Source of the DNA: Zopfochytrium polystomum
Taxonomy: Eukaryota; Chytridiomycota; Chytridiomycetes; Chytridiales; Chytridiaceae
Reading direction: 5' to 3'
NCBI GenBank assembly: GCA_025765615.1
Contig: JAIVFJ010000253.1
Location: 1 to 64,000 of the forward strand
DNA length: 64,000 bases
In this document: positions 10,703-64,000 of the stretch, one piece after another
How the letters are laid out: each line of letters starts with the position of its first letter
Position numbering within the stretch: the stretch's first letter is position 1
The notes under the pieces: model-generated
The model's input: only the letters and a program-made list of their open reading frames with translations
The model's database searches: none
What the model was told of the DNA's origin: nothing
Made by a program: the position numbers and the translations under genes

Positions 10703-12049
10703 GGCTTCATTCAACACCGCCGCCTGAGCGTCTCGGGATCTCGGGGGGAGGGGTCGGACCCCTCCGTGGAATCTGTTCAGCTTTTTGCGATCACCACGTC
10801 CCTCCCTCCATCCCTCGCGGTTGAACAGATTTCGGGCGAAAGGGAGATTGCACACGCATATTTTTTATTTTCGGAGGATGGATTTTCCAAGGCCACGCGT
10901 ACGCCCGGGGCGAGGACAGCCAGAGACGATTGTTGGTCTCAGTGGATTTTGCGGGTGGATTGCGACAGCGTGAAGGCGCGGGCTGAGCAGCGTTCGGAAA
11001 GAACAGGGAGGCTTGCTGCGCATGTCAAAGGGGTGAGTTGGAAGGCGCTTGATTGCATTGCCGTCTGGCGATCAGAAGGAAAACGATTCGATGGACTGGG
11101 CGAGGAAGTGTGTTTCGGGTGTGGCGCGGAAAGTGCGGGATGCGCTTTGTCTGTCTTACCCCAATATCGATGTCGTGCGGCCTGTCCCTGTCCTTGTTGT
11201 GCCCTTGGCACCTGCACTCGCCGTCCCCAATCACGTTTGTTCACGTTCACCTGTGGTGTGCCGTCGTGATATGACACCATCGCTTGTTGTTGCTGCTGCT
11301 GGCAGGCGATAATATGCAATTGCTGGCTCGACTAGACGCCACACACACACCCTTGAGCAGTGTGGACGGAGTCAGCACTGGGCTCGCGCCTCGGTTGAGT
11401 GGCTTGGTGCACCGTTCAAGCAGGCACGCACGCGCCCACACGCACCCACACGCCCACACACGCCCAACACGCCCACACGCCCACACGCCCACACACACAC
11501 ACACACACACACACCTGATAAATAAACAAAACATGTACTCTTGCGGTCTCCTCAAGCCTTCCTTCCTTCCGTCCCCGATCAATCAACTCGCTCCTGCTCC
11601 TTCCACTGCGACCAGGCCGTTTGTGAAATGATCATCGACCCACCGACCGACCGACTGACCGACCGACCACGGCCGCCGCCAGTTCTCTTCCCCACACAAC
11701 ATTTGAACTATTTACACAACAAACTAACTTGCAGAGGCCGCGCTTTGTAATGTTTACATTGATTGGGGGGTTCTCTCCTCCTCCTCCTCCTCCTCCTCCT
11801 TCTCCTTCTCCTGCATATTTGAATTGTAAATACGCAGGAGGAAGAGGAGGAGGAGGAGAGAAACCCCAATTCTTTCGTAAATCCAAACTGCATCGCTTTG
11901 TCCGTGGTCTGTCTGTCTGTCTGTCTGTCTGTCTCTGTCCTGCTCGTTCTCGCATGTGCAGGTTTGTCTGCCGCCGCCTGCTTGCCTTCCGACATGCTCC
12001 ATTACCGGTCAGCGTTCGTTGACTCACCGTCGGGAACATCGCCCAAAAC

Positions 12050-16086: not shown

Positions 16087-17285
16087 AAAGGAGGAAAGAG
16101 AAAGGGGGGTGGTGGGCTGTGTATGTATGCAAAGAGTGGGTTGTTTTCTTTTTTTCTTGTTCTCTTTTCCTTTTGCATTGTGGAAGAGGGGCGGGGGAAA
16201 CGGTCGTGAGGCTGTGGCCTTGTGTGTGGTGTGTGATGTGACGATGGCGGGGGAGGAGACCGGGTATTGGAGTCTCTCTCTACCCATACGCACGGTTACA
16301 CCTTCCTTGCCCCTCGCCAGTGCTTGCTTGCTTGCTGCAAGAATTGAATTTGGTTGTTTATTGTTATTTTTATTCCCCCGCCCCCCACCTTTCTCCTCTC
16401 CTTTCTACATCCCCCTTCCATTTCTTTTTTCTTTGCTTTATGGCCGTTTCTGCTTCTGTTTCCTTTCCATCTGTTTTTTTTTGTTTTGTTTTTTGTTCCC
16501 CGGCCTTTCGTTTCTTTTTTGTCTTGCGATCTTCTTGCTCTACTCTCGGCCACAGTGTATAATCCGGTTCCCCCTCTGGTCCTCTCCCTCTCTCCCTCTC
16601 TGTCGCTCTCCGTCCCTGCAGGGACTGTCTCTTTCTCTCCCTGCGGGGATTCCCGGCCCGCATCCCTTCCTTCCTTCCTTTTCCGCCTATTACTGTGTTC
16701 CTGTTATCGTTCGTTAGTATTTTTTTTTGGGGGGGGTCGAGGTCGTGTCGGATATGAGCGATGGGCGTGGGTTTGATTGGTTGGTGGGCCCTTTTTAGGG
16801 GTGGGTTGGGTGTGTTTGGCGCCGTGTTGAGTGAGGCGCAGGTGGCGCAGCGATTGAAGTAGGAGGAGGAGGAGGAGGAGGAGGAGGAGGGTGGAGACTC
16901 GCCCGCCGGCCCTCTTCCGTGGCTAAGTATTAACATAATGTATTCAAACCCGGTCCTTTCAAAAAAAAATTAATTTTTTTGAAAGGGGCGCAGTCTTGCA
17001 AGAGGGGCGGGACTGGGAAGCACACATAAATGATGAAGACGACGACGACGTGGGCGGCACACAACAACAACACCGTTTTGGTTGGTTGGTTTTGGTTGGT
17101 TTTTGGTTTGGTTGTTGGTTTTTGTTGATTGCGTTTTGCAGGAAAACGCACCTGCCCGGATTTTTTGTCGACCATTTGCGGCCATGGGCTGTTGCTAAAT
17201 CCGCAAAACGAAAATTCTGCTATTTGTGAACATGGAAACAAAAAAGCGATTGCACAGTTTTCCTTGTGTGCTCTCTCTGTCTCTG

Positions 17286-48943: not shown

Positions 48944-50028
48944 CAATACCGTAAAACGTGTCGATTTGAAACTTTAGTTGTGGACCGCTGCTTGAGCGAG
49001 GAGAGATAGTGAGCCGCGGCGTCTGTTGCGACAGCTTGTGCACGCTTCTTGGCAGCGGCTTGTGTGAGGCAGGCAGTGGCACATCAGCTGTCAGTGCGTC
49101 CAGGTCAGCAGCGGTGTCAGGGAGAGTTGCTTGGTTGCTGCACCTCTCAATCTTTGTCTCACGCTCTCTCACTCACTCACACACACTCTCTCTGTCTTCC
49201 TCTTTTGAGCCACTAAGCAGGAACAGCCCGTTGGGGCATCATACGCTCGTGGCCCACAGTGGGCTGCATCCTCCATCACTTTACCAAACGGCTCTTCGCG
49301 ATTACAATTTGAAAAGCGACCTCTTCCGACTCCGTGCGATCGTAATCCAGTCTTTAAACGAAGGAAGCGAACCGAGGAGAAGACCAAGCTGAAACTGAGG
49401 ACAATTAGGAGAAAACTGAGCCCGACGCTTCCTCCCCCCAAATTACCGGTATTGTCAAAAACAGTAGTACGAGCGCCAAGCTCCGTGGCGTTTGGGACCG
49501 AGACTGCGTTGGGATTTTGTTTCGCGCAGCAATTGAGTTGGTCCCCAAAAAAACGGATAAATACAGTGAAAGTAAAAATTTGCATCGTTTGTGCGGCTTC
49601 TCGGCGGAAGCGGGGCAAACAAGCCGGACGGCGGCGAACAGCCGTTGCTCATCCATTTTTGTCTGCGGCCGCTGTGACATCATCGAGGGATCAGTGGTGT
49701 CTGAGAGGCTGTGTCCGTTTTTGGCGTGGCGCATTGAAGGTCGGGAGAGATTGAGAGGCAGACAGGTATTTACAAGCAAGACAACATTGGTGCGCTTCCG
49801 GCAATAACAGTCAATTGGCCATCACGTCCAATAGGATTTATAATGCATTTTCCGTCTTTCTGCTTCCGGATCAAGCGGGCCGATTTTTATGTGTGTCCGC
49901 TGGCCGCATCTCCGACTTCCTCCCGCAGCAGAGGGAAGAGACCGAACGAGACCGAGCGAGACCGAGCGGCTGGCGGAAAAAGAAAGACAAACTTGGAACC
50001 TAGCATAACAAGACCTTCCCGCAGCATT
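48944..50028. other. Intergenic, upstream of the ADAM-like gene
   Basis: No gene supported. Short CT and CA runs around 49165-49200. Confidence 0.4.
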
Positions 50029-50036
50029 TATAAATA
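50029..50036 (+). promoter_or_regulatory. TATA box of the ADAM-like protease gene
   Basis: TATAAATA-type core, 53-60 bases upstream of ATG 50089. It argues that transcription starts near 50060, so in-frame codons upstream of that point are not translated. Confidence 0.55.
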
Positions 50037-50088
50037 CCATGCCATCATGCCATGCAAGGAAGCAAACAAAGCTTACCAGAGTCCACCG

Positions 50089-52395
50089 ATGCGCATCAAC
50101 GCCTCACCCTCCTCTCCCTCCGCCTCCGTCAGCACCCGCGCACCAATGGCGACGTTCCCCCTTCCTCGTTTCGTCGTCGGTGCCTTCATGTTCCTCGCCG
50201 CCCTTTACCCGCTCCGGTCGCACGCAGGCCACACCGACCTAGCGCCCGTTTCTGACCTGTTTATCAACACCACCCCCTTTTCCATCTACGCCGCAAACGC
50301 GACCCTCTCCTCTGCCATCATGCAAGGCAACTACCTCAATGTGTCCTTCACCGTCGATGGCACCGCCTTCTCCGCATCCTCGCTCACCTCGATCCCCGTC
50401 ACCGCGGTATGGGACCACTCTGCGACATCGACCGTCACCGTCGAACAGGCGGACGGAACAAAGGCCGAGGCTTCCCTGCCGGACGTGCACTACTCCGGGC
50501 TTCTCGACGATGGGTCCGCCTCGGTGCGCGCGACGCTGTACGACGACGGCATCCACCTGGTCGTGTTCAATACGTCGACGGGAAGCCTCTTCCAAGTCGA
50601 CCCCGTCGCGCACATTGCCACTTCTTTTACCGCGGAAGAGCTGGCCGCGATCGGCGGAGCGACCCACGTCTCCCTGGTGCCGTCGACCCGCGGCGCCGGC
50701 GGACCGCTCGTGTTCCACCAGGACCCGGTGACGGGGGAGTACACTTCGACGGTGATCAACACTACCGCCACAGCCGGAGCCGTGCAGCGGCGGGCGACCG
50801 TCGATGTGGCAATCCCGTCGGTGGGCTACGCCCCGCTGTGGACCGATTGCTATCCGAATATCTCGAAGAACCACACGGCGAGGTTGGCGTTCTATGTCAC
50901 GTACGGGACGTTTTTGCAGCTGGACGGGACGGGCGCGACGTCGCCGATAAAGACTCTGGCGAAACTGGGACAGTTGGTGACCGATATGAACATCATTTAC
51001 GAGCACCAGCTCGGCATCACCATTCAGGTGAGACTTTGTTTTGTACCCTCCGTGATGGTGGTAGGAACGATTTGTAATTTCCGTCACATCCAAACCTTCC
51101 AGGTCCACACAAACAACACCCGCGTGATGACGGCGCCGCACACGGCAGCGACTGCCAACTACACGTGGAACTACGGGCCTGGTTACTGCTCAACGTGGAA
51201 CAACGAGGGCGGGACGGCACTGCGCAACTACCTTGCCACGCAACCGCACGACTCCACCGTCACGACCAACTTTCTACTGACGGTCTGCAGCAGCGCTGGC
51301 GGGGAAGTCGGAAACGCAGCGCAGCCGGGCGCCTGCACGGCGGACAACATTGGCGCAGTGGTACTGTCGAGCGGGCTGTGGCTAACGGTAGCGCACGAGC
51401 TCGGCCATAACCTGAATGCGTCACACGCCTTTGAGGAAGGACAGGGCAAGACTGGCGGCGTGATGGACTACTCTGACGGTCGGTACCCAATCGGCACCGG
51501 CTACTACGGCTTCCACCCGGTGTACAACAAGCCAGAGGTGTGCCCGTACCTGACCAAGTACCAAGGCACGGCCTGTCTGCCGCTGTCGTCGACGGTCGTG
51601 GCGTCCACGTGCGGGAACGGAATTATCGAGGGCGCGGAGGACTGCGACCCCGGCCCAGGGCGCACGTCGCCGTGCTGCACATCGGCCTGCAAGTTTGTGA
51701 AGCAGTGCGACTACATGGCGGCCGACTCGGGCGCCGCGGCGTGCTGCTCGACGGACTGCACATTTAAGTCGCCGAGCACGGCGTGCGGGAAACAGAGCAT
51801 GTGCCGCGACGGCGCTTGCGTCGGCGTCATCTGCAACAGCTACTCGAACCTGAACGCGTGCGGGACGGGCGAGTGCACCTTCGGATGCTCGTACGACGGC
51901 GCCACGCAGACCTGCTACCCGGGCTCGCAGTTTGGCTGGAGCGCGCTCACCGCGCCGACCGGGGTGCATTGCGGGTCCGGCGGCACGGGCCAGTGCACCT
52001 CGGCCGGGGTGTGCGCGCCGGCAGCGGGGTCGACGGCCAAGGCCGTCTGCGGCAACGGGATCGTGGAGCCCGGCGAGGCGTGCGACCCGCCGTCGGCGTG
52101 CTGCAGCGCCACGTGCACGTTTGCGACGCCGGCGACACCCTGCGGTGGCGTGCAGTCGTACTGCAGCAACGGCAAGTGCGTGTCGTCTTCGTGCGCCCAG
52201 TACAACAACCTGCGCATTTGCCAGAACGGTAAGACGGAGAACGCGGGGTGCACGTACGGTTGCGATTTTGGCAGTGGGGCTTGCTACAACACTGCGTCGA
52301 TCAGCGGGTTTACTGCGGCCAGCGGGTACGCAGCGGACGGGTCGTTTTGCGCGAGTGGCAAGGTTTGCAAATCGGGCTCCTGTGTCGCTGCTTGA
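50089..52395 (+). CDS. Secreted ADAM-like (M12B) metalloprotease with disintegrin-type Cys-rich region
   Basis: Secreted zinc endopeptidase of the metzincin clan. Exons 50089-51027 and 51103-52395, 743 aa. The signal peptide follows Met-20 (MATFPLPRFVVGAFMFLAAL). A prodomain of about 230 residues precedes the catalytic domain, which carries HELGHNLNASH (from about residue 411; three His ligands and the catalytic Glu) and the Met-turn VMDY (~433). The C-terminal half is Cys-rich: CGNGIIEGAEDCDPG starts a disintegrin-like domain, and CGNGIVEPGEACDPP repeats that opening about 160 residues on. There is no transmembrane segment after the Cys-rich part, so it is secreted rather than membrane-anchored. 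The 75-base intron is a multiple of three without stops. Start: first ATG after the TATA box; ATG 50146 is an alternative giving a cleaner signal peptide. Confidence 0.9.
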   Translation: MRINASPSSPSASVSTRAPMATFPLPRFVVGAFMFLAALYPLRSHAGHTDLAPVSDLFINTTPFSIYAANATLSSAIMQGNYLNVSFTVDGTAFSASSLTSIPVTAVWDHSATSTVTVEQADGTKAEASLPDVHYSGLLDDGSASVRATLYDDGIHLVVFNTSTGSLFQVDPVAHIATSFTAEELAAIGGATHVSLVPSTRGAGGPLVFHQDPVTGEYTSTVINTTATAGAVQRRATVDVAIPSVGYAPLWTDCYPNISKNHTARLAFYVTYGTFLQLDGTGATSPIKTLAKLGQLVTDMNIIYEHQLGITIQVRLCFVPSVMVVGTICNFRHIQTFQVHTNNTRVMTAPHTAATANYTWNYGPGYCSTWNNEGGTALRNYLATQPHDSTVTTNFLLTVCSSAGGEVGNAAQPGACTADNIGAVVLSSGLWLTVAHELGHNLNASHAFEEGQGKTGGVMDYSDGRYPIGTGYYGFHPVYNKPEVCPYLTKYQGTACLPLSSTVVASTCGNGIIEGAEDCDPGPGRTSPCCTSACKFVKQCDYMAADSGAAACCSTDCTFKSPSTACGKQSMCRDGACVGVICNSYSNLNACGTGECTFGCSYDGATQTCYPGSQFGWSALTAPTGVHCGSGGTGQCTSAGVCAPAAGSTAKAVCGNGIVEPGEACDPPSACCSATCTFATPATPCGGVQSYCSNGKCVSSSCAQYNNLRICQNGKTENAGCTYGCDFGSGACYNTASISGFTAASGYAADGSFCASGKVCKSGSCVAA

Positions 52396-55461: not shown

Positions 55462-57661
55462 ATGTCAAAACGCTGTTGCCCTTCATGTGGAGGTTTGGAT
55501 CACCAACAAAGGACCAGCAAAAAGTGCCGAGCAAACACAGGCTGCTCATCCTGCGGAAGTAATTCACATTACCGAAATCAATCTGTCGACTGCCCTTTTT
55601 TTGCGAGCTGCTCTGCATGTGGACAGTTGAACCATGCAAACCAGGCCTCAATTTATTGTCCCTATTTTCCTGGCTGCTCTGCGTGTGGGCAGTTGAACCA
55701 TGCAAACCAAGACTCACTTCTTTGTCCCCGCTCTGCTGGCTGTTCGGCGTGTGGGCAGTTGAATCACCCAAATCAGGGTTCACTGCTCTGCCCCGATTTC
55801 CTGGCCGCCCTGCATGCAGACTCACCAATCACATTGACAAAACTTCCTGCCTCTGCCTTAACTTTGCTGGCTGCATGCCCTGTGGAAACTGCAGTCACTG
55901 TGGCCCAAACTCCCTTCAATGCCCAAACTGTCAGCCATGCCCACAATGCGGCCTTTGGGATCACCTGCATGAGCGCTCGAAGCTTTGCCCTTGACCTTGC
56001 CTCACTTGCCTCAACAATGGCAAGCCTGCCGACATTGCAGATTTCCATGAGTTCCTCAATTCTCTCGACTGTCCCCACCACCTTCCGTGTGACGCCTGTG
56101 GCAGCATGGATCACCTTGACTACCAGAGCAATGACTGTTCTGGCCACATCCCCTGCCCTGCCTGTGGCCAAAAAACCAGGTGGGATCGTTCATGCCCAAA
56201 GACTATCGTTCAGCTTGGGATAGCAGTGGCTCAGGAGCTTTGTGCTGATCAGGTGAGGTCCATTTTTCTTTTAGCCTTACAGTGTTGGTATGCCCTCCTG
56301 ACCACGCACCCCCAATTTTTTTGCATTTTGCCCTTCAGATTTGGGGCAAAGATGGTGAAAAGGACCGTTGCTGCCACTTCCTCGGCCCGATGCAGACAGC
56401 CTGTCCACTCTGCAACCCGATCATGTTCATTCAAGAGCGGACCAGCAGATCATCGAAAAAAAGCCCAAAGTTTTCACTCTGCTGCAGTTGTGGTCAAGTC
56501 TCCCTGCTGCCGTTGGCTGGCCCAACTCCCTTCATCAGTGAGCTTCTCCTGGGCAATCACTGCCTGTCCAACGAGTTCCTGTCCAACGCACGCAACTACA
56601 ACAGTCTCATGGCGTTTGCATCTGTTGGTGCAAACATCAAGAGCCACGGCCAAGGTGTTCCAGTCTTCACCATCAGCAGACAGCTCCAAGGTGGCTTTGA
56701 AGTGGAAAACTGGTGGGTGGTTGCATTCAACCGGTATCTGTCCAGAAAGTACCAGTCGCACTTCAATGTGGAGATTGCGCCACCATGAGGGCCATCAAAT
56801 ACCTCATGAAATACTTGCACAAGGGCCATGACAGAGCAAGGGTGGCAGTTGGCTCTGGAGAAGCCACTGTCTGCGTGGATGAGATTGACGACTTCCTCGA
56901 TGCCTGCTAAGTGTCTGCTCAGGAGGCCTGCTGGAGGGTCTTCCAGTTCCACATGCAAGGCTGGATACCGTCAGTCACAAGGTCAGCTGTGCATCTCCCT
57001 GACCAGCAGTCAGTTTACTTTGATGAGGATGCTGATCTTGGGGAAGTTGCCGCCCTTCAAAAAGACTCCAAGCTTCTTGCTTTCTTCAGCCTGAACGACC
57101 CGCAGCTGGAAGAGTTCCAACCTGAGCCTGTGCTGGCTCTGGAGGGCCGACTCCAGCTGATTTTTCAAAGGCTAAACTCAGAATACAATCAGCAGCAACT
57201 GGAGTCCGTTGTGGCAAACGCTGAAAGGAGCTTCAACCAAGAGCAGGCCTTTGTGTACAGGGCTGTGGTGTGATGCAGTTGAGCAATGTGGACAGCCTGG
57301 AGTGGTGCCTCCTCCACAAGGCCGAGTCTTCTTCCTACAGGGAGTGAGTCTATGATGACTTTGGTGCAGTAACTCAGCAGTCAGGAGAGGAATTTGCATC
57401 CTACTCAGCAGACAGGTGTATTTTGGCTGCAAAGAATGACGTGGTTCATCTGTTCAATGAGTATACAGTTCATCAGCTTCCAGGGGATGCCCAAGAGCTG
57501 CTTTCAGCAGACACCCCAGTTGGAAATGATGGAGGCGACAGACTTATCCTCAGCCCTGAGTTCCTAAACACCCTCAGCCCTCCCAGCCTGCCTCCCCACA
57601 GGCTAACTGTCAAAGTGGGAATGCCTCTGATCCTGCTTTGCTTTGCAACCTCGTTCCAGGG
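55462..57661 (+). pseudogene. Gutted Helitron Rep/helicase gene
   Basis: Rolling-circle DNA transposon protein, broken in several frames. Order: repeated zinc knuckles (CSACGQLNHANQ repeated with spacing, each followed by a CP motif) from 55462 to ~56170; a Helitron_like_N domain (FLSNARNYNSLMAFASVGAN, then KSHGQGVPVFTISRQLQ); AIKYLMKYLHKGHDRARVAV and the conserved EACWRVFQFHMQGW with HLPDQQSVYF; then a jump past the Rep catalytic His/Tyr motifs and helicase motifs I-IV to the PIF1-type C-terminal part (CILAAKNDVVHLFNEY, LPGDAQELLSADTP, SPEFLNTLSPPSLPPHRLTV). The gene ends abruptly at the retroelement array, in the LLCNLVPG motif that normally precedes NGTR. Frameshifts at about 56180, 56780, 56910 and 57270 and a missing middle show it is dead. 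Confidence 0.85.
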
Positions 57662-57673
57662 TTAGGGTTAGGG
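57662..57673 (+). repeat. (TTAGGG)2 at left edge of retroelement array
   Basis: Two exact telomere-type units at the junction between the Helitron gene and the first retroelement unit. Confidence 0.85.
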
Positions 57674-57698
57674 AGGGGGGTTTTTTTGACTTTCGAAC

Positions 57699-59489
57699 AT
57701 GAGTGGCAAGGGGAAGGCGCCGTCGAGGCCGTCCTCAGCGGCGTCGACCTCGTCACCGTCTGCGTCCTCACGACCGATCACCGCTTTTTTCGCACCTTCG
57801 CCTTTCGCCGTTCTCGCCGACGCCGAATCCTCACCGCTACCCCCATCCACTCCGAATAGCCGTTCTTCAGCAAAACGGAAAACGGTTGACCACCCCTCGC
57901 CCGATCAGCTCAATTGGAACCCGGCCTCTGCCACGGACTTCGAGGCCCTTGAGCTAGCTCTCTTCTACGCCACGCGATCCACCCTCCGATCAACCTGTTG
58001 CAAAGCTGAAGTTACCAGTCCTGAGAAGGCTGGCCGTCGCACTAAGTCAACAGGTGTCCGTAGTCTCAGTGTGACCTGCTCCGCTTGCAAGGCTAAGACG
58101 AGATTCCATCTCGTCTTGGGCACAAGCAATCGTGTTCTCCTCGACCGCTTACGGGCCTCACTGGAGGCCCTTTTTCGCCGATCACGGGAGGCTATTTCTG
58201 GCGAAACAGCCTTTCCCGTGGAACGCAAACGACATGCAGCAGATCGCCCATCCCCGCCGCCTGCACCCCCAGCGCCTGCAACGCCGGGGGTGGAGGGGTC
58301 GCGAGACGCGACCCCTCTCCCCCCGGATCCTGCGATGCCAACACCAGCCGCTCCGCTGCGGCTGGACCCTCCGAATCCGGCCCAGCCACCGCCAGTGGCG
58401 GTGGCTGAGCCCTCCCCAAACGCAGATCCGCAGCGGGCCCCCCGGTCTGGCATGGCTAGACTGGATGCCCTGCTGCGCACGGCCCCACGAAATCTCGTGC
58501 AAAGCGATCGACCCCCGCCACGCAGTTTCCTCGATCAGATCGTTCGACTCAACCTCGACTCAAACGAAGACGGCTACACCCGCAGCTTGCTCGACAGCGT
58601 CGCTACAGCAGCACGCACAACCCTCGCCCCGATCTTCCTGACCATGGAGCGCATTATCACCGACCAGGATCAGCTGGTTGCCTCCCTCCGCCGCCAATTG
58701 GTCGAGGCGGAGGCGGCGGCTTCTGCTGCCGCCGCCGCTCCACTGCCTGTTCTCCGCCCACCCGTATCCGATGCCGCTGTTAACACCGATCCTCCGACTC
58801 CAATGACCAACCTCGCCAGCCCCGGGGGCGGACCACCTGCTGATGGTGCGAAGGAACACAGGAAGGGCCCCGTGGGCTCCCGCAAGGGGGACCGGATGGC
58901 TCAACCCAAGTTTCTATCGCGCCGCGCGAAGCAGACAGCCGTGCTCAAGGCGGCGCTGCCTGACTCCATCCCCGCACTTGTCCTCCGACCCGTCCGCCGC
59001 CCCTCGCCCACCCCACGGGATCCCGTTCGCTACGCTCCTGTATACTTCCGAGTCTCGATAGCACACCCAGACGCGCGGAAGCACCCCCTCCATTGGCTGC
59101 GGGCTTCGCTCGCCGCCATGAAAGCCCCCTACGCTCCTGAGCTCTCCCCGATTGGTCGCGGCCTACGCACGTGGGAAGCGTGGGTCGCCGAGGAGCGGGT
59201 GGCGGCTTTCACCCAATTCCTCTCTGACCATAGCGATCTCTTCGAACACCTCCCTGACTTCGATGTGCTATCTTTGCCGATCTCAGCAGATGCAGACGAG
59301 GACGCACGCCGCAAAGCCCACAATCGTGCCGCTGACGCCTTTCTCCGAAGACGGTCTCGACTTGCCCGGAATGCATTCCCAATGGATCTCCGTCGCTGCA
59401 TTGTTGAGGCCTTCCCCGCCTGTTTCCACGATCGGTTGGAGCCTGGCCTGGCCAGGCTCTTGCCAAATCCCGCTGATAATCCAAAGTGA
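57699..59489 (+). CDS. ORF1-type protein of the retroelement
   Basis: Intact 596 aa frame starting ATG 57699, 26 bases after the telomere-type repeats. I do not recognise a catalytic domain. Visible features: a Ser/Pro-rich N-terminus; a possible zinc site of four Cys (RSTCCKAE then VTCSACKAK, about 90-135); Pro-rich stretches around 175-240; a likely coiled coil (RRQLVEAEAAASAAAAA, about 325-345); and a conserved-looking, Arg-rich C-terminal domain (YAPVYFRVSIAHPDARKHP, LHWLRASLAAMKAPY, later RLARNAFPMDLRRCIVEAFP). Small zinc sites plus coiled coil plus basic C-terminus suit an RNA-binding ORF1 protein of a LINE. The GC content is clearly higher than that of the reverse transcriptase units beside it, so it may have a separate origin. 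Assignment as ORF1 is inferred from context. Confidence 0.5.
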   Translation: MSGKGKAPSRPSSAASTSSPSASSRPITAFFAPSPFAVLADAESSPLPPSTPNSRSSAKRKTVDHPSPDQLNWNPASATDFEALELALFYATRSTLRSTCCKAEVTSPEKAGRRTKSTGVRSLSVTCSACKAKTRFHLVLGTSNRVLLDRLRASLEALFRRSREAISGETAFPVERKRHAADRPSPPPAPPAPATPGVEGSRDATPLPPDPAMPTPAAPLRLDPPNPAQPPPVAVAEPSPNADPQRAPRSGMARLDALLRTAPRNLVQSDRPPPRSFLDQIVRLNLDSNEDGYTRSLLDSVATAARTTLAPIFLTMERIITDQDQLVASLRRQLVEAEAAASAAAAAPLPVLRPPVSDAAVNTDPPTPMTNLASPGGGPPADGAKEHRKGPVGSRKGDRMAQPKFLSRRAKQTAVLKAALPDSIPALVLRPVRRPSPTPRDPVRYAPVYFRVSIAHPDARKHPLHWLRASLAAMKAPYAPELSPIGRGLRTWEAWVAEERVAAFTQFLSDHSDLFEHLPDFDVLSLPISADADEDARRKAHNRAADAFLRRRSRLARNAFPMDLRRCIVEAFPACFHDRLEPGLARLLPNPADNPK

Positions 59490-59810
59490 TGGAGACTTGA
59501 TTTTGTTTCCTTGTTCCCCGTTGCGTTATTTGTTCCCATATCTCAGTTATGCTTCTTTCTCCGTACCATTCTCCTATCTCTCCGCTCAATGTGGCCTACC
59601 TCCGTCTTGCCTCCATTGGCTTGCAATTACTAGGCATTGCTTTTGCATCTCATATTTAGTCCTTTCAATCTGTCCCTTGTTGTCATATCCTTAGTTGCTT
59701 GGGTCTCTACTCTTCTGTCCACCTGTATGAGTCCTTTAACTTTCAAAGTTGCAGATTCCTCACCCTCTCCCTCACCTTCGGGTTGGAGCGAATAATACAC
59801 TTTTGAAAAG

Positions 59811-59822
59811 TTAGGGTTAGGG
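59811..59822 (+). repeat. (TTAGGG)2 at junction of units 1 and 2
   Basis: Two exact units closing the tail of unit 1; unit 2 begins at the next base. Confidence 0.85.
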
Positions 59823-61414
59823 GTGGATTGAAGATCAACTCTCTGCTGTTTGCTGATGACTCTGCAGTGTTTGGAAGGAACAAGGCTGTCCTTCAGAAGA
59901 TGCTTGATGAAGTCCACAACTGGTCCCAGAGGCGGGGCATGACTTTTGCAGCACAGAAATGTGTTGTTGTTTCCAAGACAAGGAACCTGAGATTGCAGAT
60001 GAATGGGGTGGTGCTCCCCCAGGAGAGGTCTACACTGCAGTTGGGACTTGTGCGTGACTGCAACGGAATTGACTTTGAGACGTCTCTGCAGATGAGGGTG
60101 AAGAAGACTGAGAAGATGCTTCAGTTTCTGAAATCTCGCGGGTTCAATGGCTGGGGATTCCGGCCTGTGAATGCGTACAGGGTGTACATGTGTTTCCTGC
60201 GACCCATGCTGGAGTATGGGTTTGCGTTGAGGCCAAATTCAGAGGCCTTCTTGGCGCCTGCCCAGAAGGTCCAGGACATGTGTTTGCGCCAAGCTCTGTC
60301 TTTTGGGAAAACATCCAGCACTGTGGCAATGCATCTGATTTTTGGAGTGGTGCCGATGGTTGCCCGCAACAAGATGTTGAACGCGAGATATTTCTACAGA
60401 CTGCACCACATTCAGGACCAGAGAAACACCACTGCACACATGTACAGGCACATGGCTGAGCGGGGGAGGCGGGCTCCTGCAGGATCCCTCACCAGGCTCA
60501 CTCTGTTCACACCAGATGTAGATCTATATTTTGGGTCAGTGCCACGGAAGGCCTTGGCACAGATTCCGTTCGTCAGACACAGGACTTATCCATACGACCT
60601 TGAAGTTACCAGATCTGAGCCCAAGAACATTGATGCTGTCGCTATGCAGAAGATGCACACTGTGTCACTTGAGAAGTATAAGGAAAAGGCCAACTTGACT
60701 GGAGTGGTGGCACCCCTGGTGGTCCCCCCTCACCGGGGGCCCTGCCAGGTGGTTCGTTCTGGTGCAATGTTTAATAGGAGGTGGTTGAGATGCCTTGTGG
60801 CTTGGATGGGTGGCCGTGTTGCCTATCACCAGAAGTGCACGAAGTGTGATGCTGAGCTGGACAGGAACCATGCCTTGGAGTGTTCAGGTGTGCGCCGCCT
60901 CCTGGAGGCGGACCACCCTGAGTGCGTCCCAAGCGTGGAGCAGGCGAGGAGGAACATCACAGTGCTGGATCTGCTGCTGCAGACTCTGACTTTCTGGGCG
61001 CCCTACACAGCCAATGATGCAGATAAGATCCCTCAGGAGACGAGGGTTGCTTCAAAGAAACTGGGGATGAAGCTTGCTCGGCTGATTGCAAAGATTCGAG
61101 TGGAATGCGCTGGAATGAGGGACTTTGTGGATGCTTCAGAGACCACAGCAGAACAGGAGGCAGATTATTTGATGGAAGCAGGGACAGTGGATGATAGGAG
61201 GGCGGATCTGAGGACTCGCATGCAGATGGCGCAGGTGCGGAGGCAAGCTAGGGAAGCCCTGCGTGCGCACTGGGATCCAGTGCGCAACAAGGGGTTTAGG
61301 GAATCGAGGAACAGGTGGCTGAATAAGGAGACTCAGGGAGTGACGGGGAAGCCGGACGGATCCGGATGGGTTGACTCTGACACAGAGAGTGGTGCTTCAT
61401 TGGGAGGTGGATGA
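59823..61414 (+). pseudogene. Truncated LINE ORF2: RT motif C to C-terminal zinc knuckle
   Basis: Open frame from the junction to TGA 61412-61414, about 530 codons, without internal stops. It opens with GLKINSLLFADDSAVFGRNK, which contains the catalytic FADD box of the reverse transcriptase (motif C; YADD in most LINEs), followed by the thumb and the long LINE C-terminal domain, a CCHC-type knuckle (CTKCDAELDRNHALEC) and a charged C-terminus. Motifs A and B and the endonuclease are missing because the copy is 5'-truncated. The frame is undamaged, so this insertion is young. It would not be translated from its own promoter. Confidence 0.85.
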
Positions 61415-61715
61415 GTGTCTGTTTCTCTTGCCTCATCATTTGTTTTCCATTTGTTTTTTGTTGTGTTGTCTTTCTATTTTCAAGCTGTTGTCTGGTTTAA
61501 GTTTGTTTCTACTGTTCTTTCTGCTGTCTTCTCTTCACCTTGGCCTCTTTGTTTTTCTTCATCGTTGGCTTTTTCTCTCTCTCACATGTGCCCCCTCTGA
61601 CCTCTTGGACTTTCTGTCTTCTCCTTCACACGCATGTACTTTTTTAACTTTCAAGTTGCAGATTCCTCACCCCTTCCCTCGGGGGGGGTTGGAGCGAATA
61701 AATCCCGTTGAAAAG

Positions 61716-61727
61716 TTAGGGTTAGGG
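61716..61727 (+). repeat. (TTAGGG)2 at junction of units 2 and 3
   Basis: Two exact telomere-type units closing the tail of unit 2; unit 3 begins at 61728. Confidence 0.85.
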
Positions 61728-64000
61728 CAGACTCTGGAGAAGGACACAAAGGGGGAGTGGGTCATTGCCAGGATGTCAGAGATTATCATGGCAGTGGTGT
61801 ACTTTGCACCCTCGACGGATTTGGAGGTGCTTCAGTCATTCTCAGCAACAGCAGACAGGATTGCTGGGGCTAACCCCCAGGCACCCTTTCTGATCATTGG
61901 AGATTTCAACACTTCACTGCAGGAGTACGGCTGTGCTCACTCGCAGCCCAGGCTGAGGGTGGACTGGTGGCGCGCTTGGATTGATGGTTCAGGATGGAGC
62001 AGGGTTGAGCCAGTTCAGGGACAGTGGACCACTTTCTCACCTAGAATCGCTGGCCCAGTAGGCAGGGGAGTCACTGACTTGCTCCTTGTGAATCGTGCTG
62101 GACTTGGAGCTGTGCATAACTTGGTTGTCCATGACGCACCTGAGGAACACTTGGCCTTCACAGATCACAGGATGCTCACCTTTGAGCTTCGAACACACTT
62201 GACCATGAAGCCACCCTTTGAGAGACTGAATGTGCGCAGGCTGATGCTGAGACAAGTCCAGTATGAGAAGAAACTTGCAGAGACCAGGAAGCCCTTGAGA
62301 CAAGAGATTCACTCAGCATGGAAGTCTTTGAATGCCGCTGCTGTAGCTCAGGAGGAGTGGCCTTTTGAGCGCAGACGTGCCTGTGCAGACTCTGTATCTC
62401 AGTTGGTGGTGAAGTGGCTTGTGGACACTGGAGTCCAAGTGGCTGGGAAGACCAAGTTTAGGGGTGGTGCAGGCGGCCCTGATGTCGAGGAGAAGCATTT
62501 GGAGGAGCTGAAGCGCCGGCGGGACCTGTCCCGCATGGAGGCTGAAGCCCACCCTGATGATGATCCTGTCGGGCAGAAGGACGCCTGGGCAAAGTTCAGG
62601 CAGTGGAACAGGCTGACAAAGGTGGCCATCAAACGCTACAGGAAGAGGGTGTACTCTGCTGTGCAGGACTTAGCTGTCAAGGACTTTGCTGCTGAAGCCA
62701 AGAGAATTAAGTGTCAGAAATCCAGAGTGGAGCGCACTCACTGTGCCCTTGACCCTCAGAAACTTCCAGACTATGCTGATCACTTTAGGGGAACCATTGG
62801 CCATGAGCCAACTGGTACTGATGCCGTCAACCAGAATGTCTTAGCTGCCTGCAGTGCTGAACGGCCCATGGTGCCTCTGAAGCAATCTGAAGTTGCCTGG
62901 ATCAAGAAGAATGCCGTGGAAGAGGCTTGCAAGATTGCACCCCGGGGCAAGGCCCCAGGGGAGGATGCCCTGTTTGGCGAACTGGTGTGCATTGCCCCAC
63001 ATGTGGTGGCTCCTGTGTTGCAGAGATTCTTCCAGTTGCTTGCAGCCCTCCAGGTGGTTCCCACACTCTGGGGGATCGCGAATGTTGCCCTTGTGTACAA
63101 GAACAAGGGGGTGAACACTGATGTGGCAAACTACAGGCCAATTTCTCTGTGCTCAAGGTTGAGGCTGGTGTATGAGCGGGTGTTGGCCCCGCAGGTGGAA
63201 AGAGTGGTTGAAGGAATGATCCACCCCTCACAGGGTGGTTTCAGGCGCCACAGGTCCACCATGGACCAGGCATTCACTCTTCATGAGCTTCAGCAACAGT
63301 ACCCTGATCTGACTGTGGTGTACTTGGACATCAAGGCTGCCTATGATTGCACAAGCAGGAACTACGTGTGGGAATCCATCTGGAATGCCAAGAATGACAA
63401 GAGTCCTGAGTTCACCAGGAACCAGTTGCTGCCGATTCTCAGATCCTTGTTTGACTTTAATGCGTGCCAGCTTCTGGTCATGGGACAGAAGTCTGATCAG
63501 ATTCCAGTGACGCGGGGATTTCTACAGGGAACTGTGCTGTCCCCAATGCTGTTCAATGTTGCCATCAACTCGCTGCCTGAGGCGCTCTCTAGGGTGCCCC
63601 ACAGCCAGTTGGAATGTGGTGGATTGAAGATCAACTCTCTGCTGTTTGCTGATGACTCTGCAGTGTTTGCAAGGAACAAGGCTGTCCTTCAGAATCTGCT
63701 TGATGAAGTCCACAACTGGTCCCAGAGGCGGGGCATGACCTTTGCAGCACAAAAATGTGTTGTTGTTTCCAAGACACGAAACTTGAGATTGCAGATGAAT
63801 GGGGTGGTGCTCCCCCAGGAGAAGACCACACTGCAGCTGGGACTTGTGCGTGATTGCAACGGCATCGACTTTGAGACGTCTCTGCAGATGAGGGTGAAGA
63901 AGACTGAGAAGATGCTTCAGTTTCTGAAATCTCGAGGGTTCAATGGCTGGGGATTCCGGCCTGTGAATGCGTACAGGGTGTACATGTGCTTTCTGCGGCC
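61728..64000 (+). mobile_element. Retroelement unit 3: LINE with endonuclease and RT, runs off the window
   Basis: Begins inside the endonuclease region and is open in one frame (codon starts at multiples of 3) to the window end, as far as I checked. AP-type endonuclease motifs: IIGDFNT (61895-61915), VTDLLLVNRAG and FTDHRML. Reverse transcriptase: RPISLCSRLRLVYERVL, VYLDIKAAYD (motif A Asp), GFLQGTVLSPMLFN (motif B) and FADD (motif C, 63645-63660). The last ~380 bases align to the start of unit 2 with fewer than 20 differences by eye. This is an APE-type LINE; the clade cannot be fixed without a tree. Its 3' end and tail are beyond the window. Confidence 0.9.
61728..64000 (+). CDS. LINE ORF2: AP endonuclease plus reverse transcriptase, partial at both ends
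   Basis: Retrotransposition enzyme that nicks target DNA and copies element RNA onto it. The N-terminal part of the endonuclease is missing, because the unit starts at the (TTAGGG)2 junction with QTLEKDTKGEWVIARMSEII. The remainder of the endonuclease keeps GDFNT and TDH, and the reverse transcriptase has its catalytic Asp residues in LDIKAAYD and FADD. Between them lies a ~230-residue linker with a Lys/Arg-rich segment. No start codon belongs to this copy. Because the frame is clean, the source element was recently active. Confidence 0.85.

What the first reader, a model, noticed from the sequence alone, without database searches (positions are those of the whole stretch)
57662..64000. Head-to-tail LINE array with (TTAGGG)2 at every junction
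Three retroelement units sit in the same orientation with no other DNA between them. Each boundary is exactly two TTAGGG units: 57662-57673, 59811-59822 and 61716-61727. Two units start abruptly inside ORF2 (endonuclease, RT motif C), as 5'-truncated LINE copies do. Known telomere-linked LINEs (SART/TRAS of insects, Zepp of Chlorella, MoTeR of Magnaporthe) make comparable arrays, by inserting in telomeric repeats or by priming on the tail of an earlier copy. Here only two repeats per junction remain, so a mechanism in which the element's own TTAGGG tail becomes the next target seems attractive. I infer a telomere- or self-targeting element; this window does not show whether it lies at a chromosome end.
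Basis: partly seen in the sequence, partly recalled or inferred. Interest (0 to 1): 0.88.

Follow-up and report, generated by a model that had tools for sequence, protein, structure and literature searches.

The report
Chytrid telomere-targeting retrotransposon arrays
At its chromosome ends a water fungus carries stacks of parasitic genes that appear to insert into the telomere repeat and duplicate it, so that each insertion rebuilds the landing site for the next; one member makes only an ORF1-type protein, as in fruit-fly telomeres.

Summary
In detail: three exact (TTAGGG)2 sites bound three same-strand units. The window belongs to contig C253 of an 80-Mb assembly, by named hits the chytrid Zopfochytrium polystomum. 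The array continues past the window to telomeric repeats at about C253:88498-88667, where the last LINE is cut in its ORF1 region. Of 159 exact LINE 3' ends counted, 137 are followed by TTAGGGTTA. On contigs of 85 kb or more, 33 of 36 tails point to the nearer contig end. The telomeric 12-mer is not encoded by the element: near-identical ORF1-only copies in two arrays are flanked on both sides by TTAGGGTTAGT in one and TTAGGGATAGGG in the other, and an unrelated 3' end (family X) shares local variants. Unit 1 is an intact ORF1-only element under purifying selection (dN/dS about 0.2), a HeT-A-like partner of a two-ORF LINE. Blocks are also amplified by recombination. A new variant of a known kind. 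Why first insertions also leave about 12 nt is unexplained.

The parts
55462..57661 (+). Degraded Helitron/Pif1-type helicase DNA, the apparently truncated chromosomal sequence on which the array sits; it ends ...CCAGGG at the first junction
   Evidence: Pif1_2B_dom E=3.3e-5, profile positions 1-27 of 47, match ending about 20 bp before the junction; sequence. 'Helitron' rests on motif recall.
57662..57673 (+). (TTAGGG)2 between chromosomal DNA and the first unit
57674..59810 (+). ORF1-only retroelement unit (GAG unit), 5' start AGGGGGGTTTTTTTGACTTTCG, 3' end shared with the LINE
57699..59489 (+). Intact 596-aa ORF1-like protein gene; 30% identical to the LINE ORF1 over residues 65-219; dN/dS about 0.2 between diverged copies
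59811..59822 (+). (TTAGGG)2 junction (regenerated target)
59823..61715 (+). 5'-truncated LINE, starts at RT motif C; ORF2 3' part 59828-61414 plus 3' UTR; first 395 bases 95% identical to the C515 full-length unit
61646..61715 (+). Conserved LINE 3' end, foldable (outer stem CUUUCAA/UUGAAAAG, inner hairpin), ending ...GTTGAAAAG
   Evidence: z = -1.6, modest
61716..61727 (+). (TTAGGG)2 junction (regenerated target)
61728..64000 (+). 5'-truncated LINE, starts inside the endonuclease; endonuclease + RT; continues to C253:65512

Best explanation
A telomere-repeat-targeting, endonuclease-bearing (APE-type, L1-like) LINE lives in Z. polystomum with an ORF1-only partner. Its sense strand is the G-rich strand and its 3' end points to the chromosome end, the orientation of silkworm SART. 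Its RNA is inferred to end ...GAAAAG. I infer that it nicks the CCCTAA strand in a stretch of about two repeats, copies itself by target-primed reverse transcription, and duplicates about 12 bp of telomeric target. Each insertion therefore leaves (TTAGGG)2 on both sides and recreates its own landing site, giving head-to-tail arrays at chromosome ends and, less often, at telomere-like sites inside contigs. Arrays are also truncated, capped again with TTAGGG, and enlarged by recombination of whole blocks. Shown: chromosome-end position, orientation, junction composition, target origin of the 12-mer, ORF1-only partner under selection. Inferred: the nick, the priming and the division of labour.
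For: Telomeric repeats end this contig. Of 36 exact tails on 16 contigs of 85 kb or more, 33 point to the nearer end, 31 lie within 35 kb of the end they point to, 0 within 35 kb of the other end. 137 of 159 LINE 3' ends carry TTAGGGTTA. Telomere-phase run at 74 held LINE junctions: 38 are exactly 12 nt, 69 are 9-17, none reaches 18. The 12-mer is target-derived: ORF1-only copies in C102 and C151 (identical at all 644 aligned residues) have TTAGT versus ATAGGG on both sides; C52 X and LINE tails both show TTAGA; non-G X tails (5 of 38 exact ones) occur only in contigs whose LINE tails are non-G (compared by hand); C21 X and LINE tails share ATAGGGTTAG; within-contig concordance 25 of 26 pairs, 0 of 20000 shuffles. 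ORF2 has RT and a weak APE match; best PDB hits are 8c8j and LINE-1 ORF2p.
Against: Insertion at random in a long telomere should leave widely varying repeat numbers, yet junctions on DNA outside these families also carry about two (6 ending GG or GGG: window, L026, L049, L055, L068, L075); this is not explained. Block amplification (11.18-kb period in C253; 648 of 648 identical bases) can also spread junctions. C55 has two different variants and one C321 tail differs from its neighbours. The catalytic Glu of the endonuclease is Asp here. 22 of 159 3' ends lack exact TTAGGGTTA. No activity was tested.
Confidence: 0.75

Rival explanations
1. The arrays are built mainly by recombination (break-induced replication, unequal exchange, circles) between TTAGGG junctions of a few old copies; retrotransposition contributes little today.
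For: C253 repeats a two-unit block: 3' ends at 65489, 71539, 76679, 82719, 87854 give spacings 11190, 11180, 11175, and the last 648 bp before the telomere match an internal copy exactly. C44 repeats blocks at 16251 and 21039 bp. MoTeR arrays do this (PMC7367193, passages read).
Against: Neighbouring C515 units differ: 95% identical over 4.8 kb of 3' part but 66% at the 5' end, and the held 3' part of the third is 69% identical over about 2.1 kb. Units start at many different points of the LINE. The same ORF1-only copy sits in two arrays with different 12-mers.
Confidence: 0.3
2. Elements are added to bare chromosome ends that retain only two repeats (terminal addition, for example by template jumping onto the G overhang), not inserted internally.
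For: Explains junctions of about 12 nt at first contacts with other DNA ending GG or GGG and the terminal position of arrays.
Against: The C102 array, over 100 kb from the contig end it points to, has 12-mers with a local variant on both sides of units, which needs internal insertion with duplication. HeT-A, which is added at ends, has the opposite orientation (PMC10088271, passages).
Confidence: 0.12
3. TTAGGGTTAGGG is an encoded 3' tail of the element RNA, and arrays form by priming on it.
For: Most copies have it (137 of 159).
Against: Variants follow the locus and not the element; the unrelated family X carries the same 12-mer and shares local variants.
Confidence: 0.05

Closest known systems
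SART1 (silkworm telomere LINE, R1 clade)
   Same: Inserts in telomeric repeats; sense strand is the G-rich strand, 3' end distal; needs about 12 bp of upstream repeat (PMC7265360, abstract and passages read); two ORFs with APE endonuclease (recalled)
   Different: SART1 has poly(A) and inserts at several positions of a long repeat tract (PMC7265360, passages); R1 family (PMC10088271, passages). Here the 3' end is GAAAAG without poly(A), junctions stay near 12 nt, and the best solved RT relatives are LINE-1 type
MoTeR1/MoTeR2 (Magnaporthe) and FoTeR (Fusarium)
   Same: Fungal telomere LINEs; MoTeRs lie head to tail with a non-autonomous partner sharing both ends, and show truncation with recapping and block amplification (PMC7367193 passages and section 27; PMC12857005 abstract and section 19)
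   Different: MoTeR 5' ends face the chromosome end, and FoTeR 3' ends run into TAACCC (so the same by inference), both opposite to this element; MoTeR junctions vary from half to more than 20 repeats; restriction-like endonuclease of these clades is recalled
HeT-A/TART (Drosophila)
   Same: An ORF1-only telomeric element plus one with ORF1 and ORF2 in tandem arrays (PMC4700185, passages read)
   Different: Drosophila lacks telomerase; here telomerase exons are present. HeT-A 3' ends face the centromere (PMC10088271, passages), and these face the tip
Tx1-1_ACar (anole)
   Same: Listed as a telomere-specific Tx1 element (PMC10088271, passages read); APE/L1-like group (recalled)
   Different: Sequence not available here; no comparison made
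Zepp (Chlorella)
   Same: LINE arrays at a chromosome end built on earlier copies (recalled)
   Different: Targets the poly(A) end of earlier copies (recalled); not compared

Membership tests
Telomere-repeat-specific non-LTR retrotransposon (functional class) | Insertions lie in telomeric repeats | tested here: met
   137 of 159 exact 3' ends followed by TTAGGGTTA; reversed-pattern control 0
Telomere-repeat-specific non-LTR retrotransposon (functional class) | Copies at chromosome ends | tested here: met
   33 of 36 tails (16 contigs of 85 kb or more) point to the nearer end; telomeric repeats read at the ends of C253 and C190
L1-like APE LINE | ORF2 with APE endonuclease and RT | tested here: met
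   PF00078 E=4.2e-26; PF03372 E=2.2e-4, below its curated cut-off; GDFN and TDH present, Glu replaced by Asp
L1-like APE LINE | RT clade placement by tree | not tested
   Only PDB similarity: 8c8j and LINE-1 ORF2p E=5.8e-20, R2 E=3.6e-10
SART (R1 clade) | Sense strand on G-rich strand, 3' end distal | tested here: met
SART (R1 clade) | R1-clade RT | not tested
   No R1 reference available here
MoTeR/FoTeR | 5' end towards chromosome tip | tested here: not met
   3' ends point outward
HeT-A/TART | Telomerase absent, arrays replace it | tested here: not met
   Telomerase_RBD exons at C88:97724-98088 and telomeric repeats at ends
HeT-A/TART | ORF1-only member under selection beside a full element | tested here: met
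   Six open copies examined of 56 match rows; dN/dS 0.19-0.36 in the 13 of 15 pairs with a value

The most novel reading that the evidence does not exclude
A self-renewing landing site shared by unrelated retroelements: a LINE, an ORF1-only element and family X (with a possible reverse-transcriptase-bearing relative) all use one 12-bp telomeric target that each insertion rebuilds. Mutations in that 12-mer are copied with every insertion and so barcode the array. A HeT-A/TART-like division of labour has arisen in a fungus that has a telomerase gene, with the ORF1-only element kept for telomere delivery.
Probability: 0.35. Interest if true: 0.8.

Novelty: new variant of a known kind. Interest (0 to 1): 0.62.

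Why it matters
It would add telomere-targeting LINEs in a chytrid, an early fungal branch; the listings of my paper searches (titles and abstracts only) showed no such case. It has the SART-like and not the MoTeR-like orientation, in a genome with a telomerase gene. The target 12-mer carries heritable variants, which gives a direct way to read the order of insertions in an array. The ORF1-only partner under purifying selection looks like a second, independent case of the puzzling HeT-A design, so what ORF1 does for telomere delivery could be tested outside flies.

Tried and rejected
Encoded TTAGGG tail: rejected on locus-specific variants. Chance: rejected. Single-family array: rejected; at least a LINE (two subfamilies about 69% identical), an ORF1-only unit and X are present. 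Random insertion in long telomeres: not favoured, because no junction of 74 reaches 18 nt; fragility of longer internal tracts, reported for MoTeR (tracts above 3 repeats break, two do not; PMC7367193, passages and section 27), could set the upper limit and a 12-bp recognition need the lower one, but this is only a proposal. Rfam at gathering threshold found nothing in the window or in eight loci; a 541-base segment gave only a sub-threshold tRNA-Sec match. No Pfam or NCBIfam hit above a curated cut-off supports an ORF1 function (weak hits only, E 0.008-0.05). Fold z-scores of the 3' ends are modest (-1.75, -1.60, -0.84, 0.03 for LINE/GAG ends, 0.75 for X).

Limits of the counts: many loci were fetched by patterns containing TTAGGGTTAGGG, and required [TA]TAGG after the tail; the figure free of that bias is 137 of 159. 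In one search, 6 of 69 tails had no contig length and 27 lay on contigs under 85 kb; both groups were left out. Contigs may not be chromosomes. Assembly error cannot be excluded for C16 (convergent arrays) or for the duplicated end of C253. The permutation treats tails as independent; by contig, 5 of 6 are uniform (2 of 20000 shuffles reach this).
Full report
Setting. The window is bases 1-64000 of contig C253 (88,667 bp) in an 80.16-Mb, 761-contig assembly. Two protein hits carry the name Zopfochytrium polystomum, a chytrid of Chytridiales. One of them lies on a contig of 58,723 bp, the length of C359, and a further hit, which the window itself encodes, on one of 88,667 bp. Telomerase_RBD exons, above the family cut-off and with no hit in 14 control genomes, lie at C88:97724-98088.

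Observation. TTAGGGTTAGGG occurs three times in the window at the stated places; no shuffle of 100 has three. Unit 1 (57674-59822) carries one intact 596-aa ORF and no ORF2. Unit 2 (59823-61727) begins at the RT FADD motif. Unit 3 begins in the endonuclease at 61728 and ends at C253:65524. The first junction has no element upstream: it is helicase-like DNA whose Pif1 2B match stops half-way, ending CCAGGG.

The array reaches a telomere. LINE 3' ends on C253 begin at 59786, 61692, 65489, 71539, 76679, 82719 and 87854 (matched motif). After the last tail a LINE begins with the same 5' start as the copy at 65525, runs about 600 bp into its ORF1 region (by position in the C515 unit) and passes straight into about 170 bp of imperfect TTAGGG repeats up to the contig end. 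C190 ends in a degenerate TTAGGG/TTAAGG telomere behind another repeat.

Genome-wide. 159 exact copies of the LINE 3' end motif were counted, 137 of them followed by TTAGGGTTA; the reversed control pattern had none. For the 69 copies with exact (TTAGGG)2 I had contig lengths for 63; 36 of these are on 16 contigs of 85 kb or more. There 33 point to the nearer end, 31 lie within 35 kb of the end they point to and none within 35 kb of the opposite end. The three exceptions are on C16, where a plus-strand array meets a minus-strand array. The G-rich strand runs outward, so the element's 3' end is distal. Copies with a non-G after TTAG lie differently: where length is known, the distance to the end they point to is 103-113 kb (C102), about 248 kb (C55), 96 kb (C216), 40 kb (C192), 17 kb (C173) and 6 kb (C201).

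What follows a tail. Of 73 distinct downstream stretches held, 41 match the C515 LINE or the window's ORF1-only unit. By reading, most of the other 32 are starts of X, of the tRNA-like RNA or of the subterminal repeat; three were too short to judge, and about seven (in L006, L016, L029, L034, L036, L053, L083) I did not identify.

Anatomy. A 6,078-bp unit on C515 has an ORF1 frame of 657 codons and an ORF2 frame of 1,297 codons with a weak APE match, RT and a C-terminal C..C..H..C motif. Best solved relatives are 8c8j and LINE-1 ORF2p (E = 5.8e-20), then R2 (3.6e-10). The conserved Glu of the endonuclease (VETW in three relatives) is Asp here (LADTG), while GDFN and TDH are kept. Three neighbouring C515 units belong to different subfamilies or are mosaics (95% over 4.8 kb but 66% at the 5' end; 69% for the held part of the third).

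The ORF1-only partner. Searching with the window's ORF gave 56 match rows, many of them partial or with stops. I examined six open copies. Among four distinct ones (C102 and C151 being nearly one sequence) dS is about 0.9-1.3 and dN/dS 0.19-0.23; against a more distant sixth, dN/dS is 0.24-0.36 where dS could be computed. In each, a LINE-type 3' end is reached within 289-395 nt of the ORF end, and the copies on C253 and C102, at dS about 1.2, share an alignable 3' UTR directly after ORF1. The ORF1-only form is therefore old and kept. This is the design of HeT-A, which has ORF1 only and relies on TART (PMC4700185, passages).

The 12-mer comes from the target. (a) ORF1-only copies on C102 and C151 are identical at all 644 aligned residues (C151 has four more), but C102 has TTAGGGTTAGT on both sides and C151 TTAGGGATAGGG on both sides. 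(b) Among 28 tails with a non-G after TTAG, 25 of 26 within-contig pairs agree; 0 of 20,000 shuffles reach this; C55 is the discordant contig. (c) Family X has an unrelated 3' end (...AATTTCTTGAGGAG) followed by the same 12-mer: 50 sites with up to 2 mismatches, 38 exact. Its 5 exact tails with non-G lie on C52, C102 (two) and C201 (two), all contigs whose LINE tails are non-G. On C52 both show A; the letters on C102 and C201 were withheld. The 33 others are on contigs absent from the non-G LINE list (compared by hand). X and LINE tails share a second-repeat ATAG on C151 and C321 (one C321 LINE tail reads ATGG instead) and a first-repeat ATAGGG on C21. The simplest reading is a target duplication of about 12 bp at each insertion.

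Junction length. In 74 distinct LINE junctions held, the uninterrupted telomere-phase run is 12 nt in 38, 9-17 nt in 69, 6 nt in five (next bases ATAGG or ATGG) and never 18 or more; nine X junctions run 6-12 nt. Insertion into an existing two-repeat site with 12-bp duplication keeps this value. What it does not explain is the first insertion on other DNA. Six such junctions end GG or GGG before two repeats (window, L026, L049, L055, L068, L075; the L049 and L068 flanks are under 75 bp), and L001, L004/L005, L024 and L036 have two to just under three repeats. None of these eleven flanks matched a library of seven units. SART1 needs about 12 bp of upstream repeat (PMC7265360, abstract and passages), and MoTeR tracts above three repeats break while two do not (PMC7367193, passages and section 27); together they could bound the number from below and above. 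That is a proposal.

Recombination too. On C253 a two-unit block repeats at 11,190, 11,180 and 11,175 bp, and the 648 bases before the terminal repeats equal an internal stretch exactly. C44 repeats blocks at 16,251 and 21,039 bp. Arrays thus grow by insertion and by copying of blocks, and shrink by terminal loss with recapping, as described for MoTeR.

Chimeras. A tRNA-like RNA of about 403 nt with sharp ends (44 match rows; 40 of 83 candidates scored) is, by reading, fused to LINE or X at a different point in each of four held loci (L059, L064, L069, and a diverged form in L073). Template jumping during reverse transcription would explain this (inference).

Novelty. Telomeric LINEs are known in insects, Giardia, Chlorella, Anolis and Pyricularia (PMC10088271, passages) and Fusarium (PMC12857005, abstract and one section). 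My searches for chytrid or Zopfochytrium cases showed none in their listings; I did not open the seven Zopfochytrium papers, and most subscription papers are not held. Different here are the orientation among fungal cases, the near-fixed junction, two unrelated families sharing one target, and the ORF1-only partner in a genome with telomerase.

Noticed in passing
G000:C16:470478-493235: Plus-strand array, a subterminal repeat and TTAGGG remnants at 479302-479326 meet a minus-strand array from 481935: looks like two chromosome ends joined, or an assembly error.
   Followed up: partly
L020 (C16:480435-481934, minus): An X-type 5' end leads into a 498-aa open frame related to proteins with PF28514/PF26215 (best hit by E-value 31% identical); motifs recall a Penelope-like reverse transcriptase, not confirmed (no Pfam or PDB hit).
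   Followed up: partly
L069:7576-7979; 44 match rows genome-wide: A tRNA-like RNA of about 403 nt with sharp ends is fused 5' of LINE or X pieces at different points.
   Followed up: partly
L003:111-1500 (C4:697656-699045): Family X: about 1.4 kb, GC-rich, no convincing ORF, 5' start GGAGGAAAAACTTTGC and 3' end AATTTCTTGAGGAG before the 12-mer.
   Followed up: partly
L067:1520-2863 (C190 end); also seen in L044 (C16) and L056, L057, L061 (C44): A subterminal repeat of about 1.3 kb with GTGATTCCAAAG-type internal repeats lies between the last LINE tail and the telomere of C190.
   Followed up: no
L004, L005 (C6:679898 and 686830): Integrase-type ORF of an LTR element (by recall) cut at GAGGAATTTGAGG and followed by (TTAGGG)2 in two places of one contig.
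   Followed up: no
window 49843-52395: 850-aa reprolysin-like metalloprotease gene, about 5 kb proximal to the array.
   Followed up: no
window 55591-55788: Three 66-bp repeats coding for zinc-knuckle-like CxxCGxLNHxNQ motifs in the Helitron-type ORF.
   Followed up: no
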